DNA of 64,000 bases from positions 19,906,001-19,970,000 of the forward strand of contig JAQISU010000155.1 of NCBI GenBank assembly GCA_029339505.1, read 5' to 3'. Of this stretch, positions 46,600 to 63,309 are shown piece by piece. Source of the stretch: Unio delphinus (lineage: Eukaryota > Mollusca > Bivalvia > Unionida > Unionidae). The notes beneath the pieces were generated by a model, which was not told the origin of the DNA, made no database searches, and worked only from the letters and a program-made list of their open reading frames with translations. Each line of letters starts with the position of its first letter. Position 1 is the stretch's first letter. Position numbers and translations under genes: made by a program.

Positions 46600-46793
46600 T
46601 ACTACATTGTGCTCAAAAATGAACGAACTGGGAATACATTCATCATTACTTAAATGTAAACGGAAGCGAGATTAGAAACGTTGTTTCAAAGCTGGCCGGC
46701 ATAGAACAGGAAGAAGAATTCCAGTTTTCTCCCTTTCGCACATAACAGATAAACAATTAAAAAATTCTGTCGTTAATTTTAATAACCTGGTTC
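46600..46793 (+). pseudogene. 5' part of the LINE interrupted by the Polinton
   Basis: A plus-strand frame is open from about 46703 up to the insertion point (residues such as DKQLKNSVVNFNN). It joins without a shift to the endonuclease frame at 63310 if the element and one target duplication are removed. The extent upstream is unknown. No conserved domain lies in this left piece itself. Confidence 0.5.
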
Positions 46794-46794
46794 A
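46788..46794. other. left target-site duplication of the Polinton
   Basis: TGGTTCA here against T|GGTTCA at 63303-63309. The shared core GGTTC (46789-46793 and 63304-63308) extends to 6 bp in either direction because the bordering T and A also match. Polintons are known to make 6 bp duplications. Confidence 0.8.
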
Positions 46795-47009
46795 GCAGCA
46801 GAGAGGGTGAATCCTACAACATTTTTTGTTTTTATTTTTGATTATACCCCCTCCAAATAACACTTGACCCTTCTCGCGAAAAAATAAGTCTCTGACCCTT
46901 GTTTGAAAACATTCGCGTCGCAACGTCGTTGTCACTCACCCCCTCTGCTGCTAGAACTTTCAGTTCTAGGTTAACCGAATATTTGATCCAGTCCGATACG
47001 ATATCGTGT
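46794..47009 (+). repeat. left terminal inverted repeat (216 bp)
   Basis: Reverse complement of 63088-63303 with one mismatch (G at about 46984 where the partner implies T). It includes the last dozen codons of the ATPase gene, which therefore reads into the repeat. It contains an inward-facing copy of its own tip (46936-46952) and a perfect hairpin CTAGAACT-TTC-AGTTCTAG (46951-46969). Confidence 0.95.
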
Positions 47010-47636
47010 CCTAGGGTCTGCTAAATTTATTGTCACAAATCCGTGTGGTTTTGACTGAGCGTGACTAAAGAAATTTCTAAACTGATAATGATTCATATCA
47101 CCGCTGCACCAAGTTTGATGAATATTTCGTAGCGTATGAGTATCAACGCCGTTAAATACACACAACACATTGCAATTATCTCTGATCACTTTTGGTATTT
47201 GTGTGTATCGTTGAGTGACATAGATCACATCAGTGTTTTTATGCCTGCCTCGGGAAAATATTCTAGCAGGATTTTTTTGATTATCTAACATGATATCATC
47301 GTATACCACTAAATTGTTAATACTTCCATCGATGTCTTCCACGGAAGGGGCTTCCTCTATATCAGTAATAAACTCAATAAAATCTTCATCGATTTGAAAT
47401 TCTTTTGCTTTCTCGTTAAAATCCTTTAGCACTTCATAGCATCGCTGATCGTCTACACTCGGGGCTATTAAATACAATTTGTTCCATTTCATCCATCTCG
47501 TTATCAAATTAAGTAGCAGTTGTGTCTTTCCGCTTCCAGATGGTCCGATTATAATCATTCTAATTGAATTCGGCAACATTTCATGATGTTTAATAGGTTC
47601 CCGTCGTCGGGTAGCTGAATAATCAATTATATTCAT
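46971..47636 (-). CDS. FtsK/HerA (A32-like) genome-packaging ATPase
   Basis: 221 residues, usual size for Polinton ATPases. Walker A GPSGSGKT is at 31-38, and Walker B, NLVVYDDIM at 108-116, carries tandem aspartates. VIYVTQRY at 137-144 matches the sensor/arginine region of this family. In adenovirus-like and Polinton-like systems the protein pumps DNA into preformed capsids. The gene points outward, its stop codon lies inside the left terminal repeat, and it shares a 17 bp divergent gap with the zinc-ribbon gene. That gap holds TTATATATAAATT, which may serve both. The start is the first ATG of the frame and puts the Walker A at the usual distance. Confidence 0.92.
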   Translation of the reverse strand: MNIIDYSATRRREPIKHHEMLPNSIRMIIIGPSGSGKTQLLLNLITRWMKWNKLYLIAPSVDDQRCYEVLKDFNEKAKEFQIDEDFIEFITDIEEAPSVEDIDGSINNLVVYDDIMLDNQKNPARIFSRGRHKNTDVIYVTQRYTQIPKVIRDNCNVLCVFNGVDTHTLRNIHQTWCSGDMNHYQFRNFFSHAQSKPHGFVTINLADPRTRYRIGLDQIFG

Positions 47637-47653
47637 GCCGTTATATATAAATT
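47637..47653. promoter_or_regulatory. divergent 17 bp promoter gap with TATA-like core
   Basis: The only spacer between two start codons facing away from each other. It contains TATATATAAA. Its brevity implies that at least one transcript starts inside the opposite gene or has almost no leader. Confidence 0.4.
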
Positions 47654-47851
47654 ATGGATCTATATTGTGTGAAGTGTAAAAAACGTACTGGCACAGATGA
47701 CTTGACGACGATTACAACTAAAAATAACCGATCAGCGCTTTCTGGTAAATGCGTACAATGTAGTACAAAGAAATTTAGATTTGTTTCTAAACCCAAGGAA
47801 CTCAAGGAACCTTTAAAAAAAAACGAGGAGGTGATATCGCAGCCAAATTAG
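47654..47851 (+). CDS. zinc-ribbon protein (DUF5679-like), N-terminal part of a PLA2 fusion gene
   Basis: 65 residues in frame 0. MDLYCVKCKKRTG and SGKCVQCSTKKFRFV form two CxxC knuckles in the layout of the DUF5679 family (identified from memory). The frame ends 14 codons after the sequence CC TTT AAAAAAAAA CGA at 47810-47826. One base back (-1), the reading continues straight into a phospholipase A2 domain, which has no ATG of its own near its start. TTTAAAA at 47812-47818 is in the exact X XXY YYZ register for -1 slippage. I expect a single zinc-ribbon/PLA2 protein in intact relatives. Confidence 0.8.
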   Translation: MDLYCVKCKKRTGTDDLTTITTKNNRSALSGKCVQCSTKKFRFVSKPKELKEPLKKNEEVISQPN

Positions 47852-48183
47852 CAAAACTCCCTGGAACTCCATGGGCAAAATACCCCGGAGAAAAACACCT
47901 TCCAGGATATAGCTACTGTGGACCGGGAACAAGACTTGATATCAGACTCAATGATCAAAATCAGCCCCGACCCGGTGAGGAACCAATAAACGCTATTGAT
48001 AAGGCCTGTCACCTTCATGATGTATCTTATAAAAGCAGTAATCTGCAGCACAGGCATCTAGCAGATGTGAAATTAATTCATGCGTTAAATGCTATTTCTG
48101 ATAAATCTTTCAAAGAAAAATTGGCTTCCTTTTTGATAAAATCGGCTATGAAAAGTAAATTGATGTTAGGGGCTGGTAATTAA
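47791..48183 (+). CDS. parvovirus-type phospholipase A2 domain (-1 frame of the zinc-ribbon gene)
   Basis: Open frame without an ATG until residue SAMK near its end, so it must be entered by frameshift or fusion. It contains the calcium-loop motif YCGPGTRLD and the catalytic His-Asp pair in KACHLHDVSY, the arrangement of viral PLA2 domains (Phospholip_A2_4 group). In parvoviruses this activity breaches endosomal membranes during entry, so a virion role is plausible by analogy. The N-terminal LPGTPWAKYPG resembles the LPGTP repeats of the minor virion protein at 59090. The C-terminus is MLGAGN, which matches an adenain cleavage consensus. Eight bp separate it from the integrase start. Confidence 0.85.
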   Translation, partial: TQGTQGTFKKKRGGDIAAKLAKLPGTPWAKYPGEKHLPGYSYCGPGTRLDIRLNDQNQPRPGEEPINAIDKACHLHDVSYKSSNLQHRHLADVKLIHALNAISDKSFKEKLASFLIKSAMKSKLMLGAGN

Positions 48184-48190
48184 TAACAAC

Positions 48191-49146
48191 ATGGAATCTA
48201 TTTATTATTCCCCAAGAGGATACTGGAGGGGTAAATCAGCAATCCATAAACTCGCTAGTGCTGCAAAAGTGAAAAAAAAACCACTGCGGCTCATTGGTTA
48301 TCCAAACAGGCACTATGGCAAATTTATCTACCACCGCCTAAACAAATCAATTTCTCGCATTTTGATGTGACCGGACCCAATGAAGTTCATCAGGCTGATC
48401 TATTATTTCTGCCACATGATCGTGGTTACAAATACGCATTAACCGTAGTTGATATTGCAAGTCGATACAAAGAAGCAGAACCGTTAAAAACAAAATCAGC
48501 CACTGAAGTGGCTTCTGCATTTGAAAGGATTTATCGAAGGAGTCCTCTGCACTGGCCAAATCTATTACAAGTTGATCCTGGCAAGGAATTTCAGGGTGCA
48601 GTGTTATCTACAATGAAATATCACAATGTCGCTATCAGACGAGGGCATACTGCGCTACATCGTGATCAGGCCATTGTAGAACGATTTAATAAAACCCTTG
48701 CTGAGCGGTTATTTGGATATCAATACGCAAAAGAATTCATCCAAGAAAAAAGATCCCGTGAATGGGTTAAAAGGTTACCAGCTGTGATTACTGCACTGAA
48801 TAACGAGATTACTAGAACCATCAACATGAAACCTATCAATGCGATTAAAAAGAAGTCAATACCTGAAATGGAAATTCAAAAAGATTTTAGCGTTTCCCAA
48901 CCAATTCTTGGTAGTAATGTCATTGTGAGGTACTTATACGAACCAGGAGAGCTTGAGGGTGGCACAAAAAGGGCTACTGATCCTATTTGGAGCGTCACTA
49001 CGCATAAGATATCTAGTATAACACGATCTACGGGTAGACTTCCAATCTATAAACTGGATTCAACTGCCCCTCAACGGGGTTTTACTAGACAACAATTACA
49101 AGTGATACCTGAGGATACTCAATTACCACCGCATGGGCTTAACTAG
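48191..49146 (+). CDS. retroviral-type (rve) integrase, frame broken at an A9 tract
   Basis: The start MESIYYSPRGYWRG at 48191 is the characteristic Polinton integrase N-terminus. At 48272-48280 (nine A) the frame must step -1 to continue into TAAHWLSKQALWQIYLP and then the catalytic core. Core motifs: HQADLLFLP (first Asp), LLQVDPGKEF (second Asp) and DQAIVERFNKT (Glu), giving D-x34-E between the last two. The C-terminal part (about 180-255 of the 48367 frame) looks like the usual chromo/SH3-type DNA-binding region. Without the shift, translation ends at 48370. Its stop codon overlaps the convergent replicase gene by 8 bp. Role: insertion of the linear element into the host genome with a short target duplication. 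Confidence 0.9.
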
Positions 49147-52100
49147 CACCCTTGCGTCTATTGCACTCAAGACAAGTCAACATCACATTATTTCTGACAT
49201 GACCGAGATTGTTATTTTTTCTGTCCACGGTGAATTGGCGAGGATCCTTATCCGAATACTGCCAACGCATTATACAATTGCAACTCGCGCAGTGATTATT
49301 CTGTTGTTGCTTCAGAGTAATTATTAATTCAGCATCAATATCAAATTCTCGTTGGTTTTTTTTGTCTTGTTGTTTGTAACCGGAGAGTTTTTTATCAATA
49401 ATATCATCTATTGTGGTGTCATTATCATTGCTAATGATTTCATCATCGCCTGACTCTGTCAGGACAATTCTTCGAAGTTGATTTATTTTTCGTACTCTAG
49501 ACACTGCGAGATAGACTAAATTCGACCATTCTATGCGATTATCTACTATCCAAACAGTTATATCCGATATAGTCAATCCCTGTGAAGAGTGTATTGTTGC
49601 TGCATAACCTAGCGTCCATGGGGATTTATTAGCACGCAATGCATCTTCAACGACATTGATATCAACCAGCACAATATCATTTAATACGAGAATCTGTCTT
49701 TGAAATCCTTCGGATTTTGGTCCTGGAATATCAACTTCGATGTTCTGTTTTCGTGTATCCGATGGCCTATAACATAACGGTACTGGAAGTGTTGCAAATT
49801 TTTGTTTATGCAATTCAAATAACTTCATCTGAAGTGTGTCCCTGACTATTTTTCTACTTGCAATGATTAAATCATTTGGTCTCCACGCTTCCCAAAACTC
49901 ATTCATGGGAGTTTCTGAAATTATTTCACGGGCTATTTCACACTGGATTCTATCCGGTTGTAATCTAATTAGTTTCTTAAATTCTTTTAATTCATTATCA
50001 AGTGATCTATGATCGGTATCAATTTCTTCATAATAGTCTACAAAACCCTTTAGCCATTCATGGGGGGATGCACCGACAAATGGTGGAGGTTGGCCGTGAT
50101 CACCGCACATGACGACTTTTGTATTCTTCAATAACAACCACTCAAGAAATATTTTTAAGACATCTTCGGACACTGTGTCTATTTCATCCCACATGATAAT
50201 TTCAGGAATAAATTTCTCTCCCATGCGCTCAGGAGTCCATTTATCTCCCTTCCATCTAAAGAAACTATGATAAGTGCAGGCATTTACTCCTCGTTGTTTC
50301 ATCTCTCTGGCGAGTCTGTGAGTCGGTGTTAGCACAATCATGTTTGATTTCCCACGATATAACTCAATTGCCCGGGTTGTTTTTCCTGACCCGCCACAGC
50401 CGTTTAAATAAACTGTTTTATATCTACAGATTGGATCAGAAATCGGTGGTGCACTAGAAAATTCTGAACACTGATTGCTTTCTAAGTAATTATTTTCAAT
50501 GGTAACATCTGCTGATGGAATATAATCATGAAGCATTTCCTTCTTAATTCTCCATGACCCCCAATTCTCGTTGCCAGTAGCCTTAAAATCAGCCATTTTG
50601 CTATTTATGTAAAATGAGTCAGTAGCAACTCTAACTGCGGTGGTAGGAAATCTATTGATCATTGAAAACAGATTGATAGAAGCATAACCAAGCATAGAAG
50701 CTCTCAAATATGTGTACTGCTGATGGTATCCATCAGTGTAAGTAACAATTGTACCCAATTTGGTTCCATCGGACATAAATGCGTCCTTACGATTGACATA
50801 TAAGCCCCTATTCGTTAAATCTTTGATTACAAAATCGTATTCAGCATTGTCTATAATCAATCGTGAAGAATATCTCGTATTATCATCTTTGCCACCTTGG
50901 GTAAATTTACCGATTATTCTTCGTCCAAGATCTTTTGCTTCATTGTTTCTGATTTCAAATAACTGTCTGGACCAATCCATGATTTGTTGTTCATTAAAAT
51001 CAGGAAACAGTTTTCGCTCTTCGCTAATTATTTTTTCTAGATCAGGTTGTGGTAACCAGACTGATTTCTGTGCTCGATAGGATATAATTGCTTCACTGAC
51101 AATTAATGATTTTAACATCTTACAATCAAGCATATACCGTAATAACACTATTGGCATCCAGTGTTTTTCAGACATGTGTTTACCAATCCAAAGATAACTA
51201 CACGGATGAAGCCCTTCAGCCATTTCAAATGATACTACACAAGCGAATCCGGTTAAATCGAAATGTGGCAGTGGTCCATTAATAGCAACACGGGTCATTT
51301 CGTGTGTAGGGTGTCCAAATCGTTTGAAATATTTCTCACACTCTCCATACCCAAGAAAACTTCCTGGATAACATGCAATCATATCAACTGAAATAACGGT
51401 ATCAGCGGTGTATTTTGTGTTCCATAATCCTCCATGGCTGTATTCAAGACAGGACAATTTGACATCTGATAAGAACTCACTTCGGGTTGGTTTCCACGCG
51501 TTTTTCTTCCTAGCAAAATGTGCTACAACTGATGGAAGTGTAAAACAGTTTGCTAATAATTGATCGTTGTCTTCCCCCCCAGAACTCTGGGGAGAAAATT
51601 CACTAGCTAGTTGCTTCATTTGATTATGCAGCTCTTCAGTACGGTACAATTCTCCGTTGGGTCTTACAAACTGATCAAATCTACATTCTTCGTCTGAAGT
51701 ACTATGAAATAGCCACACTGACACAGGATCGTTTTTACTCAAATGGTAAATAGCATCAAATAATTTCTGCTCTGAAAAAAACTCTTCGGTTCCAAACAGA
51801 TATTTTACGGTTCTATCCCGTGGGAATATTGTTACTGCAGATGACCACGCGTGTTCGTTATGATCAATAATCTGTATTGGGTTTCCATTTTTATTATATT
51901 TCGATTCGTATAATACTTCTCCGGTGATTGTCCTTACCGATATTGGAAATCTCAATGATGTTTCTAATTTGGCTATATCTTGAATTGTTGCCCCATGCTG
52001 TTTCACTGTCAGTTCCCATTCGGTTATTTTTTTTCGTCTTAGATCAGTTAGTTTATTTCCCCGGGACGCATTTGTGAAGTGTTCTATTATTCGTGTTGCT

Positions 52101-52615
52101 ACACAATTGAGCCCTGTCGAATATTTCATGGGTGCTAGTTTTGAAATATCAGGTTTTTCATTGAGTGGATATATCCCGTAAACAACTACTGTGACAGGAT
52201 AAGATCTTTCGTAGTAGGGTTTATCAAGTCCAGTCAAAATTCCTGGTTTTGAATCCTGAGTCACAGTGACAGTTTTTTTGTCCTTAAGAATAGGCTCGTA
52301 TTTGTCCCTAATTATCCATTTTCCATTATCATGGATAAGGAATTTTATTCGAAAAAAATTTCTTTCTTCCCCAAGACGTGAGATTATCACTGCTGCTTTT
52401 TCATCATTCATGGTAGCGTCAACAACACCATCAATTCGAAATGTTGACCAACAATGAGCTGCCCCATCACGCTTGAATTCATTAAAACAGTCTCTGATTT
52501 TACTAATCAAGGTTCTATCAAGAATTTTATTCTTTGGTGTATCAGAAACTCTATCAAGATTGAATTGAACACTTTTCCAAGGCTTGATTTTCGATAATCT
52601 CTCGAACTCCTCCAT
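49139..52615 (-). CDS. replicase: PolB-like palm + SF1 helicase + HNH nuclease fusion
   Basis: 1158 residues, one uninterrupted frame. About 405-700 is polymerase-like. Motif A is SVDMIACYPGSF (Asp at 411), motif B-like RRIIGKFTQ is at 565-573, and motif C is VATDSFYI (ATDS, Asp at 666) instead of the usual DTDS. GSWRIKKE at 686-693 follows. About 733-1045 is an SF1 helicase: Walker A NGCGGSGKTT (Lys 745), Walker B IIMWDEID (806-813), motif III GDHGQPPP, TIHSSQGLT (1007) and LAVSRVR (1036). About 1109-1154 is an HNH-type nuclease with CASC, TVDRKN, GHVRNN and CLECN. Residues 1-390 match nothing I recognise; no exonuclease motifs are evident. It replaces the protein-primed PolB normally found in Polintons. 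It converges on the integrase and diverges from the zinc protein at 52640. Confidence 0.82.
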   Translation of the reverse strand: MEEFERLSKIKPWKSVQFNLDRVSDTPKNKILDRTLISKIRDCFNEFKRDGAAHCWSTFRIDGVVDATMNDEKAAVIISRLGEERNFFRIKFLIHDNGKWIIRDKYEPILKDKKTVTVTQDSKPGILTGLDKPYYERSYPVTVVVYGIYPLNEKPDISKLAPMKYSTGLNCVATRIIEHFTNASRGNKLTDLRRKKITEWELTVKQHGATIQDIAKLETSLRFPISVRTITGEVLYESKYNKNGNPIQIIDHNEHAWSSAVTIFPRDRTVKYLFGTEEFFSEQKLFDAIYHLSKNDPVSVWLFHSTSDEECRFDQFVRPNGELYRTEELHNQMKQLASEFSPQSSGGEDNDQLLANCFTLPSVVAHFARKKNAWKPTRSEFLSDVKLSCLEYSHGGLWNTKYTADTVISVDMIACYPGSFLGYGECEKYFKRFGHPTHEMTRVAINGPLPHFDLTGFACVVSFEMAEGLHPCSYLWIGKHMSEKHWMPIVLLRYMLDCKMLKSLIVSEAIISYRAQKSVWLPQPDLEKIISEERKLFPDFNEQQIMDWSRQLFEIRNNEAKDLGRRIIGKFTQGGKDDNTRYSSRLIIDNAEYDFVIKDLTNRGLYVNRKDAFMSDGTKLGTIVTYTDGYHQQYTYLRASMLGYASINLFSMINRFPTTAVRVATDSFYINSKMADFKATGNENWGSWRIKKEMLHDYIPSADVTIENNYLESNQCSEFSSAPPISDPICRYKTVYLNGCGGSGKTTRAIELYRGKSNMIVLTPTHRLAREMKQRGVNACTYHSFFRWKGDKWTPERMGEKFIPEIIMWDEIDTVSEDVLKIFLEWLLLKNTKVVMCGDHGQPPPFVGASPHEWLKGFVDYYEEIDTDHRSLDNELKEFKKLIRLQPDRIQCEIAREIISETPMNEFWEAWRPNDLIIASRKIVRDTLQMKLFELHKQKFATLPVPLCYRPSDTRKQNIEVDIPGPKSEGFQRQILVLNDIVLVDINVVEDALRANKSPWTLGYAATIHSSQGLTISDITVWIVDNRIEWSNLVYLAVSRVRKINQLRRIVLTESGDDEIISNDNDTTIDDIIDKKLSGYKQQDKKNQREFDIDAELIITLKQQQNNHCASCNCIMRWQYSDKDPRQFTVDRKNNNLGHVRNNVMLTCLECNRRKGAS

Positions 52616-52639
52616 ACTATAATTAAAACAAGTATTTAA

Positions 52640-52981
52640 ATGAAAGATTTAAGTATAATGAATCATTGCAAATGGCTTATGATTGGATCAGTGACACCGT
52701 GTAACAAATCATGCAGAAATGAATTCTCTTGGTATCATATGCAAAGCTTTCGTCGTGGAAGCCGAGGTCCGTTACCCTGTATTCAATGTGGGGTTGGGGT
52801 CAGGGGGAGGTCGCAATTATGCATTATGTGCGGCGGCAGACGATACAGGGAACTAAAACGCTATTATGATAAAAAAATAAAAAATACTGTCATTGACCCC
52901 AACGATGACAAAATAATAAAGACTGCTCAAGATTATATACAGAGACTTATAATTAAACCAAACAATGAATTAGAAAAATAG
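52640..52981 (+). CDS. small cysteine-rich, probably zinc-binding protein
   Basis: 113 residues, or 107 from the second ATG. It has two cysteine sets: HCKW...CNKSCRNEF and PCIQCGVGVRG...CIMCGGRRY, the latter a clear double CxxC. A basic helix (RRYRELKRYYDKKIKN) and a charged C-terminus follow. The start lies 24 bp from the replicase start, head to head, so the two probably share a promoter and an early role such as transcription control or replication accessory work. No family was recognised. Confidence 0.6.
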   Translation: MKDLSIMNHCKWLMIGSVTPCNKSCRNEFSWYHMQSFRRGSRGPLPCIQCGVGVRGRSQLCIMCGGRRYRELKRYYDKKIKNTVIDPNDDKIIKTAQDYIQRLIIKPNNELEK

Positions 52982-53337
52982 TGTTATTATACAAATGAAC
53001 CAAGAATTCAGACCTCACCCCTCCGTGCTTGTTAATTATGAAGCATTCCGTAATGGTATTATCAGAAAATTCTATTTTCGCGTAGGTCTATAACACCAAG
53101 GGAGACTACTCTTAAATGATATAACCAAGGGAGTTATCATTGTGATTTAGCTTCTGAGTATTGTTTTATAGGTAAAGAAATATTTTCTTTTTTTTTAGTG
53201 TTTAAGTCAAATATTCTGTGTCACGTGCGATTAATGCGTATTTCATAACATAGGATGTGATCCGGAGATGCAGGCATTACAGGATAACACACGTGTATAC
53301 TTTCTCCCTTAGATTGTGTTAACTTGTTTAATGGGTA

Positions 53338-53990
53338 TTGTGATTCAGCGCTGGGCATTGTTTTGTAAGAAAAGACATGTTTTCAAACAATTATATTCTT
53401 TGTTCTAGTGTTTAAGTCAAATATTCTGTCTCATTTAAATACTGTGAAACACCATTAATAAGTAATTCAAGAAAATAAAATAGCATACTTGCGGATTGAT
53501 GTATTAATTCCCTTTATATACTCTCTCCCTTAGATGGTGTCGAGATGATAAGGGAGGGAATAACAACCCCCCCCCACCTACTCTTATATGTTTCTACTAT
53601 TATGTGTAAATATAAGTGTTTTTAAATGTCTGTATGTTGACTATCATTTGTATAATTTAATATGTAAATATTGAATAAAGATTTTAAAAAAAAGAGGATG
53701 CCGACATGGCACCTATAAAAGATGTACAAATGCTACATCTATAAAAATTACATTACAGTATGTCGTGGGTTATTTGCCTTTAAATTGTGATTCAGCGGCT
53801 TGGGATATAATTAATTAGAAAAGAAATCAAATATAAAATGTTTTCAAACGATTATATTCTTTTTTTTTAGTGCTTTATGCAAATATTCTGTCTCATTTAA
53901 ATACTGTGAAGCACCATTAACAAGTAATTCAAGAAAATAAAATAACACACTCTGTGGATTGAAGCTGCTGTATTAGTCGCCTTATATACT
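53338..53990. repeat. dispersed direct repeat pair (~185-200 bp units)
   Basis: Units 53338-53522 and 53787-53990 share GTGATTCAGCG, TTTTCAAAC.ATTATATTCTTT and a long block around CTCATTTAAATACTGTGAA. A weaker third piece (AGTGTTTAAGTCAAATATTC) is near 53198. Confidence 0.85.
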
Positions 53991-54009
53991 AAATGAAAGG
54001 TTTAAAGCT

Positions 54010-54154
54010 GGGGCTTTCAAGGCCAATTCGACCAGTCAAAAAATAACCCACGCCATTGACACGTGTGCGTGGTTGACTTTTACTCAATCATGCAACCGGG
54101 TTTAATTTCAGGGGTTGCTTTGATTGGTCGAATTGGCCTTTGAAAATCAGCCCC
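54010..54154. repeat. inverted repeat, ~32-36 bp arms, ~78 bp loop
   Basis: The left arm 54010-54040 (GGGGCT...AAGGCCAATTCGACC) pairs with the right arm 54119-54154 (GGTCGAATTGGCCTT...AGCCCC) with one mismatch and a small bulge. No flanking target duplication was seen, so a nested miniature transposon is possible but unproven. Confidence 0.85.
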
Positions 54155-54194
54155 GTCGTTTCATGTTTGTGATGTCTGTGCCGTCCCATCATCA

Positions 54195-54425
54195 TTACAT
54201 CATCATTGAATTATAATCCATATTACATCATCATTGAATTATAATCCATATTACATCATCATTGAATTATAATCCATCCTTAATTAAGTTAATTAAGTAT
54301 ATGTATACCTACAATCTGAATGGAGATATATACGGTATTTGTGCTGTCCTTAATTAAGTTAATTAAGTATATGTATACCTACAATCTGAATGGAGATATA
54401 TACGGTATTTGTGCTGTCCTTAATT
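54195..54425. repeat. two adjacent short tandem repeats
   Basis: Three copies of a 28 bp unit (CATCATCATTGAATTATAAT...) are followed by two copies of a roughly 72 bp unit starting CCTTAATTAAGTTAATTAAG. Confidence 0.9.
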
Positions 54426-54437
54426 AAGTATATGTTG

Positions 54438-54445
54438 TGACGTCA
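54438..54445. promoter_or_regulatory. perfect CRE/ATF palindrome
   Basis: TGACGTCA, 30 bp upstream of an ATG at 54475. One consensus 8-mer in a window this size can occur by chance (roughly one expected per 65 kb at equal base use). Confidence 0.3.
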
Positions 54446-54474
54446 CCCCAAGCATATCTTCTGGGCGGTCTAAG

Positions 54475-54702
54475 ATGGCGTTTGCCACGTTAGGCCTCCC
54501 TTCCGGAGATGTATGTTTCGGGTTTCCCTTGGGCTTACTTGGATGTGAAGGCAGCCAAGGAGTTCCAAAGATGTGTTGTCGTATATATGTAACCTCTAGG
54601 TCATTTCACGTAAACATACCCTCTTGTGATTATAACCCGTTATTTGACGAGTTAGATTCACTCTTAGGGGAATATGTTTCCGGTGAATGTAAATATAAAT
54701 GA
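54475..54702 (+). CDS. small hypothetical protein
   Basis: 75 residues with several cysteines (GDVCFG, LLGCEG, KMCCRIY, IPSCDY, SGECKY) and a Gly-rich start. Not recognised. It lies just after the CRE-like site and its composition is less AT-rich than the surroundings. It may be a real small gene or chance. Confidence 0.25.
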   Translation: MAFATLGLPSGDVCFGFPLGLLGCEGSQGVPKMCCRIYVTSRSFHVNIPSCDYNPLFDELDSLLGEYVSGECKYK

Positions 54703-54721
54703 CCTAAAATAAATACCATCC

Positions 54722-54943
54722 ATGGATGTAATTAGCTCTCCATCACATTTGGGTTACCCCGTATGGTGTTCAAAAATGAATTACCGGCCAAAACGTGGAT
54801 GCACATTGGGTAACCCCAGAATGAATTATAGGCTAATAGAAACGGTCATAGGGTCATATCTCAAAGAGCAAAAACATTCTGATATAAAACAGAAACAGAA
54901 AAATGCTCTAACAAAGGACCCTATGAAAGACACAAAGGCCTAA
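54722..54943 (+). CDS. small hypothetical basic protein
   Basis: 73 residues with a repeated MNYR motif (positions about 20 and 34) and a lysine/glutamine-rich C-terminus (HSDIKQKQKNALTKDP). It starts 19 bp after the previous frame's stop. No family was recognised. Confidence 0.2.
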   Translation: MDVISSPSHLGYPVWCSKMNYRPKRGCTLGNPRMNYRLIETVIGSYLKEQKHSDIKQKQKNALTKDPMKDTKA

Positions 54944-55029
54944 TAAGGGACCCAATCAATGCAAATAGAACCACAACGGCCTATATCAAGGGGGCCAAAT
55001 GACTGATAATCGCTCATCATGGTTGATAT

Positions 55030-55215
55030 TTATTTTTGTCTGCATTTATATTTATATATACAGAATTAATTTTAAAAAAATATATTTATATATACAGAAT
55101 TAATTTTAAAAAATATATTTATATATACAGACTGAATTTTAAAAAAGATAGTTATATATACAGACTGAATTTTTAAAAAAGATATTTATATATACAGACT
55201 GAATTTTTAAAATAT
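55030..55215. repeat. AT-rich ~35 bp tandem repeat
   Basis: About five units of TATTTATATATACAGA.TGAATTTTTAAAA type, directly upstream of the 118-residue frame at 55267. Confidence 0.9.
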
Positions 55216-55266
55216 TAACGGCTCATTTATTTTTGAAAAATGAATTAGAAATATGTATTATCATAT

Positions 55267-55623
55267 ATGAATTCTGAAATTATGAATAGCATCATAGTTG
55301 AAATTGCAAAATTGAAAAATCAGAATATTAGATTGTCAGATGGGTTAAATCCTGATCAAATCAAGTCGGATTTTCAGGATATAGAATACGGAGTTAGCAC
55401 TAACAAGTATATGTTGCCAAAGAAATATGCACTCATCAAAAAAATTCAAAATTCTATTCGAGACTCTCTTTCATTTTCCAGTGAAGTAGATGTGTTTGTT
55501 CCGTTATATACTATCGTGGAAGGAATACGAAAAGAATTGGGTAACGAATATGAATTGAAAAAGGAAGTTAATTCTAAAATTAGAAACTTACGAGCGTTAA
55601 TTCAAGAAAATGAACTATTTTGA
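55267..55623 (+). CDS. hypothetical helical protein, first gene of the virion half
   Basis: 118 residues, charged and predicted mostly helical by eye (IIVEIAKLKNQN, YALIKKIQNSIRD, VNSKIRNLRALIQENELF). No motif was recognised. Length and composition are those of a real gene rather than a shadow. It could be a regulatory protein or a small virion component. Confidence 0.45.
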   Translation: MNSEIMNSIIVEIAKLKNQNIRLSDGLNPDQIKSDFQDIEYGVSTNKYMLPKKYALIKKIQNSIRDSLSFSSEVDVFVPLYTIVEGIRKELGNEYELKKEVNSKIRNLRALIQENELF

Positions 55624-56119
55624 TTGACCGGCCCCTCAAAAGATTTTGTCAGACAGTAAAATCTCCTTGAGATTTTCATTTTTTTTTTTGTCATTTTTGA
55701 TTGAATCAGTGAAAATATTTCACACTGCGAAAATAAAATAGAATCCTAACAGCTTTTCTCTATGGAAAATCCAATGCAAAATCGACTACTTGACCCTACG
55801 AGGTTTTTTGATGAAAATCGATGAAAAATGACCAAACATGACTGAAAACAGGCAAAAATTGATGAAAAATGGCTAAAAATCATCAAAAATGAGTTTTAAC
55901 AGCTTTTCCTTATGGAAAATCCCATGTAAAATCGACTACTTGACTCTAAAATCTCTTTGAGATTTTCAACTGAAAACCACCAAAACTGTCAAAAACAGGC
56001 AAAATCAATGGATAAAAAATAAAAATATTTCACAGCAATAAAAAGTTGGACCGTTAAGGATGGAATCATCGATGGGGAAAATTGTTTTACAATTGAAAAA
56101 TGGTTTCTGATTTCAAATA
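55624..56119. other. intergenic spacer with duplicated AT-rich block
   Basis: A phrase AACAGCTTTTC..TATGGAAAATCC followed by AAATCGACTACTTGAC occurs at about 55748-55794 and 55899-55944. Runs of GATGAAAA and AAAATG triplets lie between. No frame of note. The 3' end carries AATTGAAAA at 56091. Confidence 0.6.
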
Positions 56120-57082
56120 ATGGTCAATGAAGCATTAACGACCCGATTGGCTCGTGAGCGACTAGATGCAATTAAGAAATTTATACCAATTCGCGACTCT
56201 GTAAGAAATAAACTGCAACAACGACAGAGTTTACAAACTGATTTTGCTCTGGGGTCTGAAGAGTTGTTTAAACCAGTAACCACAGCAACGAAAGGAGTAG
56301 AGCGTGCTTTACTGGGAGATAGTCCCGAGACGGGGAAATCTGTTATTGGTGAACTTGAAAAACTAGCAGCGAAAACTGAACAAACAAAACAAATAGAATC
56401 AAAGAGAACAGTAGATGATTTACGCATGAGATTTAACGAAGAAGGGTTAGCAGCAATTGATGAGACTGATCCAACAGAAATTCCTACGCTTGTTGTTACG
56501 TCCTATGAAGACAGAAAAAAAATGTTGAAACCAGAACATCATAAGTTTGTTAAGAATTTCACTCACTGGGCTGATATATTCTATAAAATCAAAACTGGAA
56601 AAAGTCAAAAAAAGACAGATAGTGCATCATACATTGAATATATCAGGATGGTGGATCACGTGTATAATCAATACGAAGAGTTTAAACAACAACAAAAACC
56701 GCCAAGATTGCAAAGAAAGCGACAGCAACCTGCAAAGAAAATATCTTTTTCACCTAAAAAACAACAACTACCACCTGATGATGATGATGATACTCTTGAT
56801 TATTTACAAACCACGGATACAGACAAACTAGATGAAGCAACTGGTTATAGCGGAAGTGGATTAGGAAATCCAAGGATTGGAAACACTTGTCCTGATAGTG
56901 TTATCAATGATATATCACGATTAGATGTTCTCATCGGAGGAAAACGAGCTGGAAATAACTCTCTAGAAATAATTAATGAAGCAGCTGATATCTGTAAACG
57001 GTTCTTTGCCGGCGGTATCATGGATATCAAAACATATCGAGATTTCATTGACGAGTTAGCAAATGGGTATCATAGCGATTAA
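56120..57082 (+). CDS. conserved Polinton virion-associated protein
   Basis: 320 residues. An N-terminal helical region (about 1-110), a middle globular part, a basic linker (QRKRQQPAKK), an acidic run (PPDDDDDTLDY) and a C-terminal domain with LDVLIGGKRAGNNS...EAADICKRFFAGGIM..KTYRDF. That C-terminal pattern (L-GS/GG-xxAGNNS ... NE ... L..G.I....Y) is one I recall from proteins encoded next to capsid genes in animal Polintons; function unknown. LIGGK fits the adenain cleavage consensus. AATTGAAAA lies 29 bp upstream of the start. Confidence 0.7.
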   Translation: MVNEALTTRLARERLDAIKKFIPIRDSVRNKLQQRQSLQTDFALGSEELFKPVTTATKGVERALLGDSPETGKSVIGELEKLAAKTEQTKQIESKRTVDDLRMRFNEEGLAAIDETDPTEIPTLVVTSYEDRKKMLKPEHHKFVKNFTHWADIFYKIKTGKSQKKTDSASYIEYIRMVDHVYNQYEEFKQQQKPPRLQRKRQQPAKKISFSPKKQQLPPDDDDDTLDYLQTTDTDKLDEATGYSGSGLGNPRIGNTCPDSVINDISRLDVLIGGKRAGNNSLEIINEAADICKRFFAGGIMDIKTYRDFIDELANGYHSD

Positions 57083-57115
57083 ATAACAATTGAAAACACT
57101 ATTGTTTTTATAATA

Positions 57116-57562
57116 ATGATTATACACTACAATCATGATAAACCAACCCTCGTCTATGTAGTTAATTCACGGTTTCCAGTTTATAGAGCATACTACGGAG
57201 ATGGCCTCGGCAAGACCATTTTAGGATTCTTTTCAAAAACGGCCCCAAAAGTGATGCCGTTAGCTAAACAACTAGGAATGAAAGCCATTGATGTTATTCG
57301 TGATAAGGGTATTAGTACTGTTGGAGATCTTGCCGGGAAAGCGTTTTCAACTGCGAAGGATAAAATAACATCATTAGTGAGACGAAAAGAGAAACAGGTA
57401 CCATTGCCATCTACAGCAGAGATACCTGCGAGTGTCAGTAAAATTATAAATAACGCAGTAGATGAAAAACTAGCGTCGATGGTAAATCAAGAGGACCAAA
57501 ATAACATGACAGCAAACATGATAGCAGGAAGTGGCTTTAAAAAACCACGTAGAAAGCGCTAG
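57116..57562 (+). CDS. small basic minor virion/core-like protein
   Basis: 148 residues. A short N-terminus precedes YYGDGLGKTILGFF, an amphipathic stretch (SKTAPKVMPLAKQLGMKA) and Lys/Arg-rich segments. The C-terminus is GSGFKKPRRKR. The pattern (glycine-rich hydrophobic start, basic end) resembles adenovirus-like core or cement proteins, by analogy only. IAGSG near the C-terminus fits an adenain site. AATTGAAAA is 28 bp upstream of the first ATG. Confidence 0.6.
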   Translation: MIIHYNHDKPTLVYVVNSRFPVYRAYYGDGLGKTILGFFSKTAPKVMPLAKQLGMKAIDVIRDKGISTVGDLAGKAFSTAKDKITSLVRRKEKQVPLPSTAEIPASVSKIINNAVDEKLASMVNQEDQNNMTANMIAGSGFKKPRRKR

Positions 57563-57616
57563 CGTTTTTCACGATGAAATGGAAAATCCGATTTAGACTC
57601 TGATAAATAGAATAAA

Positions 57617-59032
57617 ATGTTCAAAAGGTCACCTGATCCAGCATTTGATATAGATGCCCCAGTGCGTAAAGATGATTCTGTACGCGATTTTCAATTTTAT
57701 TCTTATCACGCAGTACAACCAGATCTCCGATCACGAATTGAACTTCAAGTTCATGATACCAGTAAATACTTTTTGCCTTGTGAAGCGTTTATTGAAGTAG
57801 AAGGAGAACTTGTAACAAATGTTGCAGCTGATACCCCATATGACATTAGCCCAACTACCCGAGTTGGTTTTGTTAATAACGGTATCATGGCGTTATTTGA
57901 AAGCGCTAGATATCTCATTGATGGAAAAGAAATTGAATCCATTGACCGTGAAGTTGATGTGGCTACAACAATCATAGGGTTAGCAAGATATTCTGATGAT
58001 TATACAAGATCAGCGAGTCCATCTATGATGTTTGCAAAGGATATTACTGATAACGCTGAACACAACCAGTATTCTAGAGTCAAGGCAACACAAGTCACTG
58101 CAGTTAATCCAGCACCAGCCGGATATACAAGACCACCTGGTGATTTTGATGTCATAAATACTATTACTACTTACAATCTAGGATTTGCAACACGTGTATC
58201 AACATTACAAGGACAGCGTCGACAATTTTTATGTGCAATTCCACTGCATCATATATTCGGATTCTGTAGAAACGTCCGAAAAGTTATTTATGGAGCTAAA
58301 CACACAGTAGCGCTTGTACGAAAGGGTACTGATAATGATGCAATATGGCGTGATGCTGCTGTTCCTGATGGTAAAGTCGTTTTAACAAAACTATCATTGT
58401 GGATGCCAGTGTTAACTCCATCAATTACCGCAGAAGGAAAATTGTTATCATTTATGGACCAAGGAGGAAAGTCGTTATTGAGTTGGTTATCAGTGACTAC
58501 GGATACTAAACAAGACAATGTTAATGGTACATTCACATGGCACCTGGCATCAAAACAAGGAGTTTCAGCTCCACGTCATATATTTATTGCATTACAGAAT
58601 GCTGCGCGAGTTGGTGATCAACCACGAAGTCATATGATATTTGATCAGTTAGGTGTTAATGAAGTCTCGCTGAGAATAAACGGACAGCAGGAACCATCTG
58701 AAGATGTGCAACTTGATTACGGTCAAAATCATATTGCACGTGTCTATCATAACCTGTTGTCATTTATGGCACGTGATCAAAATGTGGATACCGGTTTGCA
58801 AATATCACAATGGGATTTCAAAAGCCTCTATCCGATTTATTACTTTTCACTGGAACATCTTGATTTAACAAGACAATCTGTCGTTGATATACACTTCAGA
58901 GCCCGTGTAACCCGTCCTGGTGCTGTTGCTAATTATAGAGCGGTTGCTGTCATTCTCAGTGATAAATCAATGCTACTTGAAGGTGTTGGTGGAAGAATGA
59001 GAGTGGTAGATGCACCAGTGGAAAATATGTAA
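57617..59032 (+). CDS. major capsid protein, double jelly-roll fold
   Basis: 471 residues. Diagnostic stretches: SRIELQVHDTSKYFLPCEAF with IEVEGELV (about 38-65, first strands of jelly roll 1), VGFVNNGIMALFESARYLI then DGKEIESID (about 85-110) and a second barrel around YPIYYFSLEHLDL...VDIHFRARVTR near the C-terminus. This is the DJR-like group of capsid proteins found in animal Polinton-like elements. It is shorter than the roughly 600-residue hexon-like Polinton proteins. Trimers would form the capsid facets. A 117 bp piece (58080-58196) recurs in the fiber gene. The upstream motif CGATTTAGA (57589) is shared with the next gene. Confidence 0.85.
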   Translation: MFKRSPDPAFDIDAPVRKDDSVRDFQFYSYHAVQPDLRSRIELQVHDTSKYFLPCEAFIEVEGELVTNVAADTPYDISPTTRVGFVNNGIMALFESARYLIDGKEIESIDREVDVATTIIGLARYSDDYTRSASPSMMFAKDITDNAEHNQYSRVKATQVTAVNPAPAGYTRPPGDFDVINTITTYNLGFATRVSTLQGQRRQFLCAIPLHHIFGFCRNVRKVIYGAKHTVALVRKGTDNDAIWRDAAVPDGKVVLTKLSLWMPVLTPSITAEGKLLSFMDQGGKSLLSWLSVTTDTKQDNVNGTFTWHLASKQGVSAPRHIFIALQNAARVGDQPRSHMIFDQLGVNEVSLRINGQQEPSEDVQLDYGQNHIARVYHNLLSFMARDQNVDTGLQISQWDFKSLYPIYYFSLEHLDLTRQSVVDIHFRARVTRPGAVANYRAVAVILSDKSMLLEGVGGRMRVVDAPVENM

Positions 59033-59089: not shown

Positions 59090-59689
59090 ATGTATAACAT
59101 GTCATATAGTGTTATTAGTGTTGCGTTAACTCCTGGTCAAATCAAAAAATTGCAATCAGAATCGGCTAAAAAATGTGGAACCACAATCACGTTGAAACCT
59201 AATCAAATGACTGGTGGGGCAAATAAATTATCGCTGACAACTCGTCAAGTGAAACATTTCAATGATGCTTTCAAGGATAAAAAAGGAGTTCAGATCACAC
59301 TCTCTTCGGCTGCTATCAAAAATATGATAAAAACAGGTGGTATATTTCCGTTGTTTGCTGCAATACCAGCATTGGTTGCGGCAGCAGCCCCAGCAGTAGC
59401 AAAAGCGGCCGCATTGGGGGTAGTTGGAGGCTTGGGAACAAAAGCGGTACAGAGCATTGCTGAATCATATGAACCGAAGAAAGGTCAAGGGTATAAAAAA
59501 AAGGGAAAGGGTCTAAGACTACCAGGAACCCCATATTCATGGTACAGCGGAAAGGGTCTAAGACTACCAGGAACCCCGTATTCATGGTACAGCGGAAAGG
59601 GTCTAAGACTACCAGGAACCCCGTATTCATGGTACAGCGGGAGATCCGTTCACGGATCAGGCCTGAGACTACCAGGAACGGTTTATTAA
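59090..59689 (+). CDS. minor virion protein with hydrophobic segment and LPGTP repeats
   Basis: 199 residues. An N-terminal half of two related blocks (LTPGQIKKLQSESAKK, LTTRQVKHFNDAFKDKK, each followed by a T-x-L/S beta-like stretch) is typical of Polinton pVI/pX-like proteins. A Gly/Ala-rich hydrophobic segment follows (about 84-122, FPLFAAIPALVAAAAP), possibly membrane-active. The C-terminus has three near-identical 15-residue repeats with LRLPGTPYSWYSG plus a fourth partial LRLPGTVY. At DNA level the repeats are 45 bp units at 59511, 59556 and 59601. MTGGA near residue 41 fits an adenain cleavage site. Usual role by analogy: capsid-internal cement or membrane disruption. Confidence 0.75.
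   Translation: MYNMSYSVISVALTPGQIKKLQSESAKKCGTTITLKPNQMTGGANKLSLTTRQVKHFNDAFKDKKGVQITLSSAAIKNMIKTGGIFPLFAAIPALVAAAAPAVAKAAALGVVGGLGTKAVQSIAESYEPKKGQGYKKKGKGLRLPGTPYSWYSGKGLRLPGTPYSWYSGKGLRLPGTPYSWYSGRSVHGSGLRLPGTVY
59511..59645 (+). repeat. 45 bp coding tandem repeat (three units)
   Basis: Units start GTCTAAGACTACC at 59511, 59556 and 59601 and are nearly identical. They encode a 15-residue motif, and the low divergence implies recent expansion. Confidence 0.95.
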
Positions 59690-59700
59690 TTCAGAAATCT

Positions 59701-60138
59701 ATGGTTCCAATGTCCAATTTTGATTTAATGGATGCTGCTAAAAAACTAGTGATTAAAAATTTCAGAGGTGTTTTTATGAAAGATCAATTACCACATCAAC
59801 CAAACAAAACTGAAACAGGTATTATTAATCTCGATAACAGCACCGGACCTGGAACTCACTGGGTTGCATACGCTATTGATCCACGTGGGATTGTCTATTT
59901 TGATTCATATGGATTAGCCCCACCAAAAGAGTTTATGCATTATATAAAAACCCTTCCAATGAAGACTTGGTATTCTACGCTACCAACACAACAAATCAAT
60001 GACCCACCAATATGCGGCAGTGAAGTATTAAATGTCCTTGACGCTATTTCTAACTCCTTGGGTAACCCAAGGGGAAAACCACCACACATTGTCGTAAATG
60101 ACTACACTAGTAATCGCTTTTTAGAGATAGATATATAA
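59701..60138 (+). CDS. adenain-like cysteine protease
   Basis: 145 residues from the ATG at 59701. The same frame is open upstream over the repeats but that is a shadow of the neighbouring gene. The catalytic His is in GPGTHWVAYAI, the acidic residue in VYFDSYGLAPP, the oxyanion Gln in LPTQQIND and the Cys in PPICGSEVL, in the order of adenovirus protease and Ulp1-type enzymes. In Polintons it processes virion proteins during maturation. It starts 12 bp after the stop of the repeat protein and is followed 6 bp later by the fiber gene. Confidence 0.88.
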   Translation: MVPMSNFDLMDAAKKLVIKNFRGVFMKDQLPHQPNKTETGIINLDNSTGPGTHWVAYAIDPRGIVYFDSYGLAPPKEFMHYIKTLPMKTWYSTLPTQQINDPPICGSEVLNVLDAISNSLGNPRGKPPHIVVNDYTSNRFLEIDI

Positions 60139-60144
60139 AATATC

Positions 60145-61233: not shown

Positions 61234-61878
61234 ATGATTTCATCATCGCAATATCGCTATGATCAGGTCAGAGAGTATCAAACTAGACTCAAAACCTTGT
61301 CTGAGGAGTATGAATTGAAAATTAAAAAATATCGCAGGAGAATTACCGCAATTGATGTTACTGTGTACGCTGTGAGTGGTGTAATCACCGGAGCTGGTAT
61401 TATACTGTCTTCAGTGACAATGATGGCCCCGATAGCTGTTCCAATTTGCATTTCTGCGGCAACAACAATCGCTGGAATAATTTCAATAATCACAAAAAAA
61501 ATATCATCATGCAGCCAACGGAAACTACAAGACTACATAATTCAATTTCATGTTGTGTCCACTGCATACTCGCAATTATCCTCATTGATATCGTCATCGC
61601 TCGATGATACAATTATATCAGAGAGTGAGTTTTCAGCGATGGTAGATATATATGATTCTGCGATGTCAAAATTAGAAATACAACATGAGTATAATAACAA
61701 TGACAACACAGATGGAATTACTTCAACAAATAGTGGAGAACACAAAACCAGTACAAACAAGCATGATCTCAATAACCTCAACGAATCCAGAATTCAGTGT
61801 GAATTTCCCCTCTCCGGTCCCAGTGAAGGAAATCGCGCTAGCAAAATTACGAGTATACCACAGCTGGCCAAATATTAG
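61234..61878 (+). CDS. two-helix membrane protein of the virion module
   Basis: Open for 214 residues. The first 150 look real: a charged coiled-coil-like start (YQTRLKTLSEEYELKIKKYRRR), then two adjacent hydrophobic segments (about 42-65 and 68-88, AVSGVITGAGIILSSVT and PIAVPICISAATTIAGII), then a helical region. The two-helix pattern after a basic helix recurs in animal Polintons as I remember it. The last 65 residues overlap the penton gene in another frame and are low-complexity. The native end may be earlier, or the overlap is real. AATTGAAAA is 32 bp upstream. Confidence 0.65.
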   Translation: MISSSQYRYDQVREYQTRLKTLSEEYELKIKKYRRRITAIDVTVYAVSGVITGAGIILSSVTMMAPIAVPICISAATTIAGIISIITKKISSCSQRKLQDYIIQFHVVSTAYSQLSSLISSSLDDTIISESEFSAMVDIYDSAMSKLEIQHEYNNNDNTDGITSTNSGEHKTSTNKHDLNNLNESRIQCEFPLSGPSEGNRASKITSIPQLAKY

Positions 61879-63058
61879 GTCAAAACCATTTGGTGGTCAA
61901 CAACCGAATAATTCACTGGTATTTGCAAATAAGAATAAACCCGACGGTACCCCAGACTGGAACGTTGTTTCCATACCAACCGGATCATATCAAATTGAAC
62001 AAATCAATGATGAATTCGCGCGTAGAATAAAATCGATTACTGGAAAAGAATCAAAAATAGCTATAACAGTTCATGTGCCGACACTATCATCTGCCATTGA
62101 AATAAGCACAGAGGGTTATGTCGTAGATATCTATCAAAGCTCAATAAGAACAGTACTAGGATGGCCTGAATTACCACCCGGAGGAAAAACCGTTAAATTA
62201 CGAGAACCACAAAAAACCGATTATATCACAGACAGGACAAAATCTGATAATCCAGTAAGGAGTTATAAAGATTATGATAAGTCATATTTTTTCATTAGAG
62301 TAGAATATGATGAAAGAGTACTACTTATTCATCATCTTGCTAACCGGGATAAAATCACTGAAAATTTCACAGCTTTCAATAACGATATTTCGTTGTTGTT
62401 TATATCTCTTAGATCCGGCACTCTCACCCGAGATGAATTTATCAGTGTCGTAGAAACATGTAACAAAATCATCAATGACATGGAAACATTTCATTCACAA
62501 ATTATTCAAGAAGTATTAGGTGACAGTAGTCCTAAAACAAGAGATTTATTTGCAATAGAATATAGGATCCGCATAGGAGATATTCCAACATTCAAACTTC
62601 CAGGATATAATATCTCAGAACTACAAAAATCTCTCGATGATGCCATCGATGAAGGTTTCAAAAAAATCCATGATACGTGGAAAAAAACACCATCACAACC
62701 ACAAACAACTATCCTCAAACATAATAATGACCCAGATGGTGGTGGCAGGCATATTGCTCCGTTCAATGTGAATATTTCAACGGTGATTGCGCTCAATTTA
62801 GTATGTGATGTGATCGAAGGAAGCTATCAAATTAATCTAGAACGATCAAATCAAGCTCAGCAAGGATATATTTTGTATTCATTTGCACCAACAGCTCCTC
62901 CAGGGTTTTTAATAATTGAGTCTCCGGTGAATCCAGTCTATATGCGATGTCATAATAATTCATTAACCAGAATTAATTTCAAACTCACAGATCAGTCTAA
63001 TAATCTGATTGATTTACAAGAGGAGGTTTTACAAATTAGTCTATTTGTGAAATCATAA
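61685..63058 (+). CDS. penton-like minor capsid protein (single jelly roll) with internal insertion
   Basis: 457 residues. The N-terminal part (about 25-155: NPEFSVNFPSPVPV, NVVSIPTGSYQIEQIN, IYQSSIRTVLGWPEL) and the C-terminal part (about 365-457: HIAPFNVNISTVIALNLV, IEGSY, YILYSFAPTAPPGFLII, NFKLTDQSNNLIDL) match the single jelly-roll penton protein of Polintons and virophages. Between them lie about 200 extra residues, mostly helical and charged. The usual size without the insert is about 250. The start at 61685 overlaps the preceding frame by 194 nt; later ATGs at 61700, 61712 and 61763 are alternatives. It ends 30 bp before the right terminal repeat. Confidence 0.8.
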   Translation: MSIITMTTQMELLQQIVENTKPVQTSMISITSTNPEFSVNFPSPVPVKEIALAKLRVYHSWPNIRSKPFGGQQPNNSLVFANKNKPDGTPDWNVVSIPTGSYQIEQINDEFARRIKSITGKESKIAITVHVPTLSSAIEISTEGYVVDIYQSSIRTVLGWPELPPGGKTVKLREPQKTDYITDRTKSDNPVRSYKDYDKSYFFIRVEYDERVLLIHHLANRDKITENFTAFNNDISLLFISLRSGTLTRDEFISVVETCNKIINDMETFHSQIIQEVLGDSSPKTRDLFAIEYRIRIGDIPTFKLPGYNISELQKSLDDAIDEGFKKIHDTWKKTPSQPQTTILKHNNDPDGGGRHIAPFNVNISTVIALNLVCDVIEGSYQINLERSNQAQQGYILYSFAPTAPPGFLIIESPVNPVYMRCHNNSLTRINFKLTDQSNNLIDLQEEVLQISLFVKS

Positions 63059-63087
63059 ATGATTTTCGTCCCCAGACAAGGTCTCGA

Positions 63088-63303
63088 ACACGATATCGTA
63101 TCGGACTGGATAAAATATTCGGTTAACCTAGAACTGAAAGTTCTAGCAGCAGAGGGGGTGAGTGACAACGACGTTGCGACGCGAATGTTTTCAAACAAGG
63201 GTCAGAGACTTATTTTTTCGCGAGAAGGGTCAAGTGTTATTTGGAGGGGGTATAATCAAAAATAAAAACAAAAAATGTTGTAGGATTCACCCTCTCTGCT
63301 GCT
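63088..63303 (-). repeat. right terminal inverted repeat (216 bp)
   Basis: Partner of 46794-47009, 215 of 216 positions complementary. It carries the same inward-facing tip copy (63145-63161) and hairpin (63128-63146). A 68-residue frame crossing it (63059-63265) is probably not a gene. Confidence 0.95.
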
Positions 63304-63309
63304 GGTTCA
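63304..63309. other. right target-site duplication of the Polinton
   Basis: GGTTCA, equal to 46789-46794. The final A coincides with the first base of the left repeat, so 5 bp are unambiguous and 6 are possible. Confidence 0.8.

What the first reader, a model, noticed from the sequence alone, without database searches (positions are those of the whole stretch)
49139..52615. Polymerase, SF1 helicase and HNH nuclease fused in one Polinton replicase
Polintons are normally defined by a stand-alone protein-primed PolB. Here the only polymerase candidate has palm motifs DMIACYP, GKFTQ and ATDS, then a full SF1 helicase, then an HNH domain. There is no visible 3'-5' exonuclease and motif C lacks the usual first Asp. 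This suggests a different initiation mode with built-in unwinding and nicking. I vaguely recall uncharacterised proteins of this layout in other eukaryotes, so the fusion may be wider than this element.
Basis: partly seen in the sequence, partly recalled or inferred. Interest (0 to 1): 0.85.

Follow-up and report, generated by a model that had tools for sequence, protein, structure and literature searches.

The report
Polymerase-helicase fusion of a virus-like transposon
A virus-like jumping element in what is probably an animal genome seems to copy itself with one large protein that joins a protease, a DNA polymerase, a helicase and a nuclease; this kind of fusion was already known from elements of other organisms, so the new part is mainly the host and how recently it has multiplied.

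Summary
Window 49139-52615 (minus) is one intact 1158-aa frame with family-B palm motifs (D411, K570, A664-T-D666), a Pif1/RecD/Dda-like SF1 helicase and a C-terminal HNH domain. It lies in a 16,510-bp element with inverted repeats, 5-bp target duplication, integrase, A32 ATPase, double-jelly-roll capsid and adenain-like protease. This layout is the published Tlr1-like helicase, or pPolB-S1H fusion; missing exonuclease, missing first Asp of motif C and C-terminal HNH are all described there (PMC11071308). That favours ordinary protein-primed initiation over a new mode. New here: at least 40 copies of 98-100% identity in one 2.5-Gb genome that also carries canonical Polinton PolB genes; relatives in molluscs and mycorrhizal fungi; an HNH domain aligned in 42 of 44 members. 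Palm homology rests on predicted structure and conservation; sequence profiles did not beat shuffled controls. Known kind, new member.

The parts
46789..46793 (.). left target-site duplication GGTTC
   Evidence: equal to 63304-63308
46794..47014 (+). left terminal inverted repeat, begins 5'-AGCAGCAG
   Evidence: inverted repeat found; 3 mismatches in 221 bp to the right copy
46971..47636 (-). A32-type packaging ATPase, 221 aa
   Evidence: Pfam Pox_A32 2.3e-16
47654..47848 (+). DUF5679 piece
   Evidence: PF18930 8.1e-14
47824..48180 (+). phospholipase A2-like piece, in another frame than the DUF5679 piece
   Evidence: PF08398 2e-12
48367..49146 (+). retroviral-type (rve) integrase core; the N-terminal part appears not to be in one open frame in this copy
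   Evidence: PF00665 1.3e-7, 32.3 bits, just under its cut-off of 32.6; frames
49139..52615 (-). the replicase: pPolB-SF1 helicase-HNH fusion, 1158 aa
52157..52534 (-). replicase residues 28-153: alpha/beta domain at the place of the terminal protein
   Evidence: model m551bb372b3aa; function inferred from position
51464..52156 (-). replicase residues 154-384: OTU-like protease region with Cys171 and His252
50411..51463 (-). replicase residues 385-735: family-B polymerase palm, motifs A 411-417, B about 561-573, C 664-667
   Evidence: Foldseek to phi29 DNA polymerase 3.2e-6 with the whole model (aligned range not shown); mavirus polymerase 1.1e-11; conservation
49442..50410 (-). replicase residues 736-1058: SF1 (Pif1/RecD2/Dda-like) helicase
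49142..49372 (-). replicase residues 1082-1158: HNH / endonuclease VII-like domain
   Evidence: PHROG 1035 4.2e-9; aligned in 42 of 44 members
52640..52981 (+). 113-aa frame with two CxxC pairs, divergent from the replicase
   Evidence: no Pfam match
56120..57082 (+). 320-aa frame, part of the capsid gene cluster
   Evidence: order shared with a diverged relative
57116..57562 (+). 148-aa frame of the capsid cluster
57617..59032 (+). [quoted passage not shown]
   Evidence: PF21738 2.2e-18
59090..59689 (+). 199-aa frame with three 15-aa repeats
59539..60138 (+). adenain-like maturation protease frame
   Evidence: PF00770 0.0037, below its cut-off
61685..63058 (+). 457-aa frame, possible minor capsid or penton protein (guess)
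   Evidence: no Pfam match
63083..63303 (-). right terminal inverted repeat
63304..63308 (.). right target-site duplication GGTTC

Best explanation
The protein is a Tlr1-like replicase (pPolB-S1H) of an integrated, virus-like Polinton-type element in a eukaryotic host. Most likely it works thus. The N-terminal alpha/beta domain serves as terminal protein and offers a hydroxyl for the first nucleotide at each end of the linear DNA; the OTU-like protease then frees it from the rest; the exonuclease-less palm extends by strand displacement; the fused SF1B-type helicase, which by its family should move 5'-3', rides the displaced strand in the direction of synthesis and makes up for the lost exonuclease. 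The copies are packaged by the A32 ATPase into a double-jelly-roll capsid and inserted by the rve integrase with a 5-bp staggered cut. Shown: intact frame, conserved catalytic positions, helicase and HNH domains, terminal repeats, 5-bp duplications, many near-identical copies. Inferred: priming by the N-terminal domain, self-cleavage, polymerase activity, helicase polarity in this protein, packaging. The role of the HNH domain is open.
Confidence: 0.83

Rival explanations
1. One reading: a new replicase type with a different initiation mode, in which the HNH domain nicks and the helicase unwinds so that the polymerase starts from a nick rather than from a protein.
For: HNH residues are aligned in 42 of 44 members that reach helicase motif VI, more than a passing homing insertion would be expected to show; no recognisable terminal-protein fold among listed rows.
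Against: Linear element with terminal inverted repeats and integrase as in protein-primed relatives; OTU-like region and an extra N-terminal domain as in the published protein-primed family; the position where many HNH nucleases carry the general-base His is Arg1132 in 40 of 42 (the expectation of His is recalled).
Confidence: 0.08
2. The palm is a catalytically dead relic and the protein works only as a helicase, with replication by a host polymerase or by the stand-alone PolB of the canonical Polintons in the same genome.
For: First Asp of motif C is Ala in 49 of 50; motif B is degenerate; the title of the 2016 paper on the fusion calls the polymerase inactivated (seen only in a reference list); canonical PolB genes abound in the genome.
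Against: D411, K570, D666 and the surrounding motifs are nearly invariant over molluscan, fungal and unnamed sequences, which a dead domain would not need; the 2024 paper gives up the inactivation claim because several active polymerases lack that Asp.
Confidence: 0.12
3. The sequence is a contaminant or assembly artefact, not a host-genome element.
For: Some relatives sit in bacterial and archaeal MAGs.
Against: At least 40 copies on many contigs, those checked being of megabase size, with element ends and 5-bp duplications at 7 distinct other sites.
Confidence: 0.01

Closest known systems
Tlr1-like helicases / pPolB-S1H fusions of Tlr1 (Tetrahymena), polinton-like viruses and transpovirons (PMC11071308; PMC3671162)
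   Same: Order: variable N-terminal domains, OTU-like protease, exonuclease-less palm with changed first Asp of motif C, SF1 helicase, C-terminal HNH or GIY-YIG; Tlr1 also has rve integrase, ATPase and capsid genes (passages; section 10).
   Different: The host genome here is 2.5 Gb and probably animal; the named relatives found are in molluscs and glomeromycotan fungi; the HNH domain is stably kept; an adenain-like protease frame is present, reported absent in Tlr (PMC4028283, passage).
Canonical Polintons / Mavericks with stand-alone pPolB
   Same: rve integrase, A32 ATPase, double-jelly-roll capsid, protease, terminal repeats (as a group; from the papers' passages and recollection).
   Different: Those of this genome have DTD in motif C (8 of 8 fetched) and a polymerase in which Pfam sees DNA_pol_B_2 and no helicase (972-aa part of one copy); in the two copies that I read in part the integrase and ATPase are only about 26-28% identical to this element's.
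OmPLV helicase SF1-pPolB of Oxyrrhis marina (PMC12721341)
   Same: SF1 helicase and pPolB in one protein.
   Different: Reverse order, helicase first, and the exonuclease is kept; its authors suggest an independent origin (abstract and passages).
Mavirus pPolB
   Same: TP-vOTU-palm, most of the exonuclease lost, first Asp of motif C missing (PMC11071308 passages).
   Different: The helicase (S3H) is a separate gene.

Membership tests
Tlr1-like helicase (pPolB-S1H) | SF1 helicase C-terminal to the palm in the same protein | tested here: met
Tlr1-like helicase (pPolB-S1H) | palm of family B with motifs A, B, C, first Asp of C changed | tested here: met
   motifs and conservation; whole-model fold matches to phi29 and mavirus polymerases; sequence profile not significant; palm not folded alone
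Tlr1-like helicase (pPolB-S1H) | TPR1 and TPR2 subdomains of protein-primed polymerases | tested here: inconclusive
   phi29 is the only DNA polymerase named in the 50 rows, but the palm was not folded alone and the aligned range is not given
Tlr1-like helicase (pPolB-S1H) | OTU-like protease before the palm with conserved Cys and His | tested here: met
Tlr1-like helicase (pPolB-S1H) | terminal-protein-like domain before the protease | tested here: inconclusive
   an alpha/beta domain is there; no terminal-protein match among listed rows
Tlr1-like helicase (pPolB-S1H) | no 3'-5' exonuclease | tested here: met
   PF03175 not matched by the window protein nor among the 25 of 41 families shown for 42 rows; N-terminal region models otherwise
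Tlr1-like helicase (pPolB-S1H) | common clade with Tlr1, transpoviron and PLV proteins in a sequence tree | not testable with these tools
   no protein so named was listed, and searches found no viral contig
Polinton (strict sense) | rve integrase | tested here: met
   PF00665 1.3e-7, 0.3 bits under the curated cut-off
Polinton (strict sense) | stand-alone protein-primed PolB with exonuclease | tested here: not met
   only the fusion was found in the element
Polinton (strict sense) | 6-bp target duplication (recalled) | tested here: not met
   5 bp in the window and in 8 of 8 copies with both ends found, one of them ambiguous in a TA repeat

The most novel reading that the evidence does not exclude
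An animal-resident Tlr1-type lineage in which the C-terminal HNH nuclease is a fixed working part of the replicase rather than a homing insertion, multiplying recently in a genome that also houses canonical Polintons, so that two protein-primed replication designs, one with exonuclease and one with helicase plus nuclease, run side by side in one host.
Probability: 0.35. Interest if true: 0.6.

Novelty: new member of a known kind. Interest (0 to 1): 0.42.

Why it matters
Tlr1-type replicases were described from a ciliate element, polinton-like viruses and transpovirons (PMC11071308). Here one sits in a probably animal genome in dozens of near-identical, mostly uninterrupted copies, with relatives in molluscs and mycorrhizal fungi. 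That would widen the host range of the type, offers a recently active example, and lets exonuclease-plus and helicase-plus replication be compared inside one host. Because Pfam did not see the palm, such proteins get names like 'AAA family ATPase', so their spread is likely underestimated.

Tried and rejected
Sequence proof of the palm: the Pfam scan of the protein at E up to 1 showed no polymerase family; that of 42 rows (the first row is only residues 28-400) shows none among 25 families of 41. A profile against solved structures found SF1 helicases (some under other names), TraI and one restriction enzyme at 1.4. Hhalign against phi29 and PRD1, 8 near-identical Polinton copies and 31 Polinton polymerases (30 of the 120 listed, plus one copy of this genome) is not significant; controls are given under evidence against. 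I therefore do not claim sequence homology. Spacing of motifs was considered as evidence for TPR subdomains and dropped, because RNA-primed polymerases have similar spacing (recalled).

Viral contigs: two scans of IMG/VR found no relative; GTDB genomes gave one 3,152-bp contig of an archaeal MAG, probably contamination; phage records gave none for the replicase or the capsid.

Not reached: host identity (probably a bivalve or other mollusc by the nearest named Polinton polymerases; inference only); count of terminal repeats in the genome (the query did not complete). The 2016 paper on the fusion is not held; a search for the name H6WBE3 found nothing. The first selection run mixed strands and is void; one search replaces it; there 7 of 28 pairs were dropped for unequal length. 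An earlier count said 33 of 40 copies without stop; the table gives 34.
Full report
What is there. The finding's coordinates hold one uninterrupted minus-strand frame of 1158 aa. In it Pfam sees the SF1 helicase (AAA_19 2.1e-10, AAA_30 4.2e-8) and a sub-threshold HNH (0.058); PHROGs see a Dda-like helicase (2.1e-17) and an endonuclease VII-type HNH at 1082-1157 (4.2e-9).

The element. Inverted repeats begin 5'-AGCAGCAG; with a 5-bp duplication GGTTC on either side the element is 46794-63303, 16,510 bp. The two repeats differ at 3 of 221 positions. It carries an A32 ATPase, an rve integrase core just under its cut-off, a double-jelly-roll capsid protein, an adenain-like protease below its cut-off, and DUF5679 and phospholipase A2-like pieces. 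No other polymerase was seen among the frames scanned.

Copies. In the window's own 2.5-Gb genome the replicase has at least 40 full-length copies of 98-100% identity, the window's included; 34 of the 40 have no internal stop; only 40 candidates were scored. I fetched end pieces for 10 other copies: in 8 of 10 both ends were found, and all 8 show a 5-bp duplication, at 7 distinct sites because two copies on one contig share flank and duplication; at one site in a TA repeat the length is ambiguous; in 2 of 10 the right end was not found in the stretches fetched. Lengths were 15,113-16,482 bp. Eight copies, the window's included, differ pairwise by 0.26-0.98% in the replicase gene, pooled pN/pS 0.37 over 21 of 28 pairs. 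So the element spread recently, and with selection on this protein.

Limits on the palm. Sequence methods do not reach it. The window protein matches no polymerase family in Pfam at E up to 1; for 42 family rows none is among the 25 families shown of 41. Profile-profile scores lie within the range of shuffled controls and below those of two other segments of the same protein, though motif C and a following G-x-W stretch fall in register. The palm is therefore accepted from predicted structure, from nearly invariant catalytic positions and from the published family, not from sequence similarity.

What it belongs to. PMC11071308 (section 10 read whole; other passages) describes Tlr1-like helicases as vOTU-palm-S1H proteins with variable domains in front, first Asp of motif C missing as in the active polymerases of mavirus and pipolins, exonuclease lost, and C-terminal HNH or GIY-YIG. 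The features named in the finding are all in that description. PMC12721341 (abstract and passages) describes a helicase-first fusion that keeps the exonuclease and cites the Tlr1 fusion as prior. PMC3671162, PMC4642659, PMC4028283, PMC10120064, PMC7805220 and PMC4409740 were seen as passages. The 2016 paper whose title states the fusion was seen only as a reference.

Distribution. The first search gave 74 relatives at 30-74% identity, the second 189, of which 120 were listed. Named ones are Elysia sea slugs, glomeromycotan fungi (Gigaspora, Racocetra, Cetraspora, Diversispora, Rhizophagus, Ambispora, Acaulospora) and MAGs of Candidatus Thiodiazotropha, a clam symbiont (recalled); most have no name. 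In a FastTree of 51 sequences (window and 50 of 74) the five named fungal ones form one group and the window groups with four unnamed proteins (supports not printed). HNH residues are aligned in 42 of 44 members that reach helicase motif VI. Seven literature searches on Polintons and one more on animals (20 of 14,995 listed) showed, in titles and abstract starts, no paper on this replicase type in animals; the library lacks most subscription journals.

Contrast within the genome. PF03175 was scored at 75 candidate places and gave 150 matches, in the part with motif A (profile about 208-365) and in a part before it (about 8-218, by its place the exonuclease), many in open frames of about 1361 aa. 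A 972-aa part of one such frame matches PF03175 at 3.4e-44 and no helicase family. Pieces beside two of them carry integrase and ATPase only 26-28% identical to this element's. Beside one lies a diverged capsid cluster in the same order as this element's (capsid 71% identical), ending about where the similarity between the two Polinton copies begins, so an older relative appears to have been hit by a Polinton insertion.

Mechanism. Shown: intact, selected, multi-copy gene; terminal repeats; 5-bp duplications. Inferred from the family: protein priming at the ends, release by the OTU-like protease, strand displacement aided by the fused helicase. Pif1-type helicases move 5'-3' (recalled), which on the displaced strand is the direction of the fork. 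The HNH role is unknown; Arg1132 (40 of 42) stands where many HNH enzymes have the general-base His (recalled), while His1139 (43 of 43) and Asn1143 (41 of 43) are kept.

Verdict. Confirmed observation, known kind, new and abundant member in a probably animal host.

Noticed in passing
window 47654-48180: A DUF5679 piece and a phospholipase A2-like piece (PF08398) follow each other in different frames between the ATPase and the integrase.
   Followed up: partly
window 47640-48400: The integrase N-terminal part appears not to be in one frame in this copy; among 8 copies the open stretch at this place is 324 codons in 6 and 290-295 in 2, the window included (assigned by position).
   Followed up: partly
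window 58080-58196 and 60817-60933: A 117-bp stretch of the capsid gene is repeated exactly at and beyond the end of the frame 60145-60894, as if copied there recently.
   Followed up: no
window 59504-59640: Three 45-bp repeats (15 aa) lie where the frames 59090-59689 and 59539-60138 overlap, so the true start of the protease frame is unsure.
   Followed up: no
L045 1606-5306: A diverged capsid cluster (capsid 71% identical) sits directly beside a canonical Polinton, as if the latter had inserted into an older relative.
   Followed up: partly
L035-L042: The same genome holds many stand-alone Polinton polymerase genes (75 candidates scored), the 8 fetched about 95-96% alike to the first.
   Followed up: partly
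L009: An archaeal MAG contig of 3,152 bp encodes a 42% identical relative, probably eukaryotic contamination.
   Followed up: no
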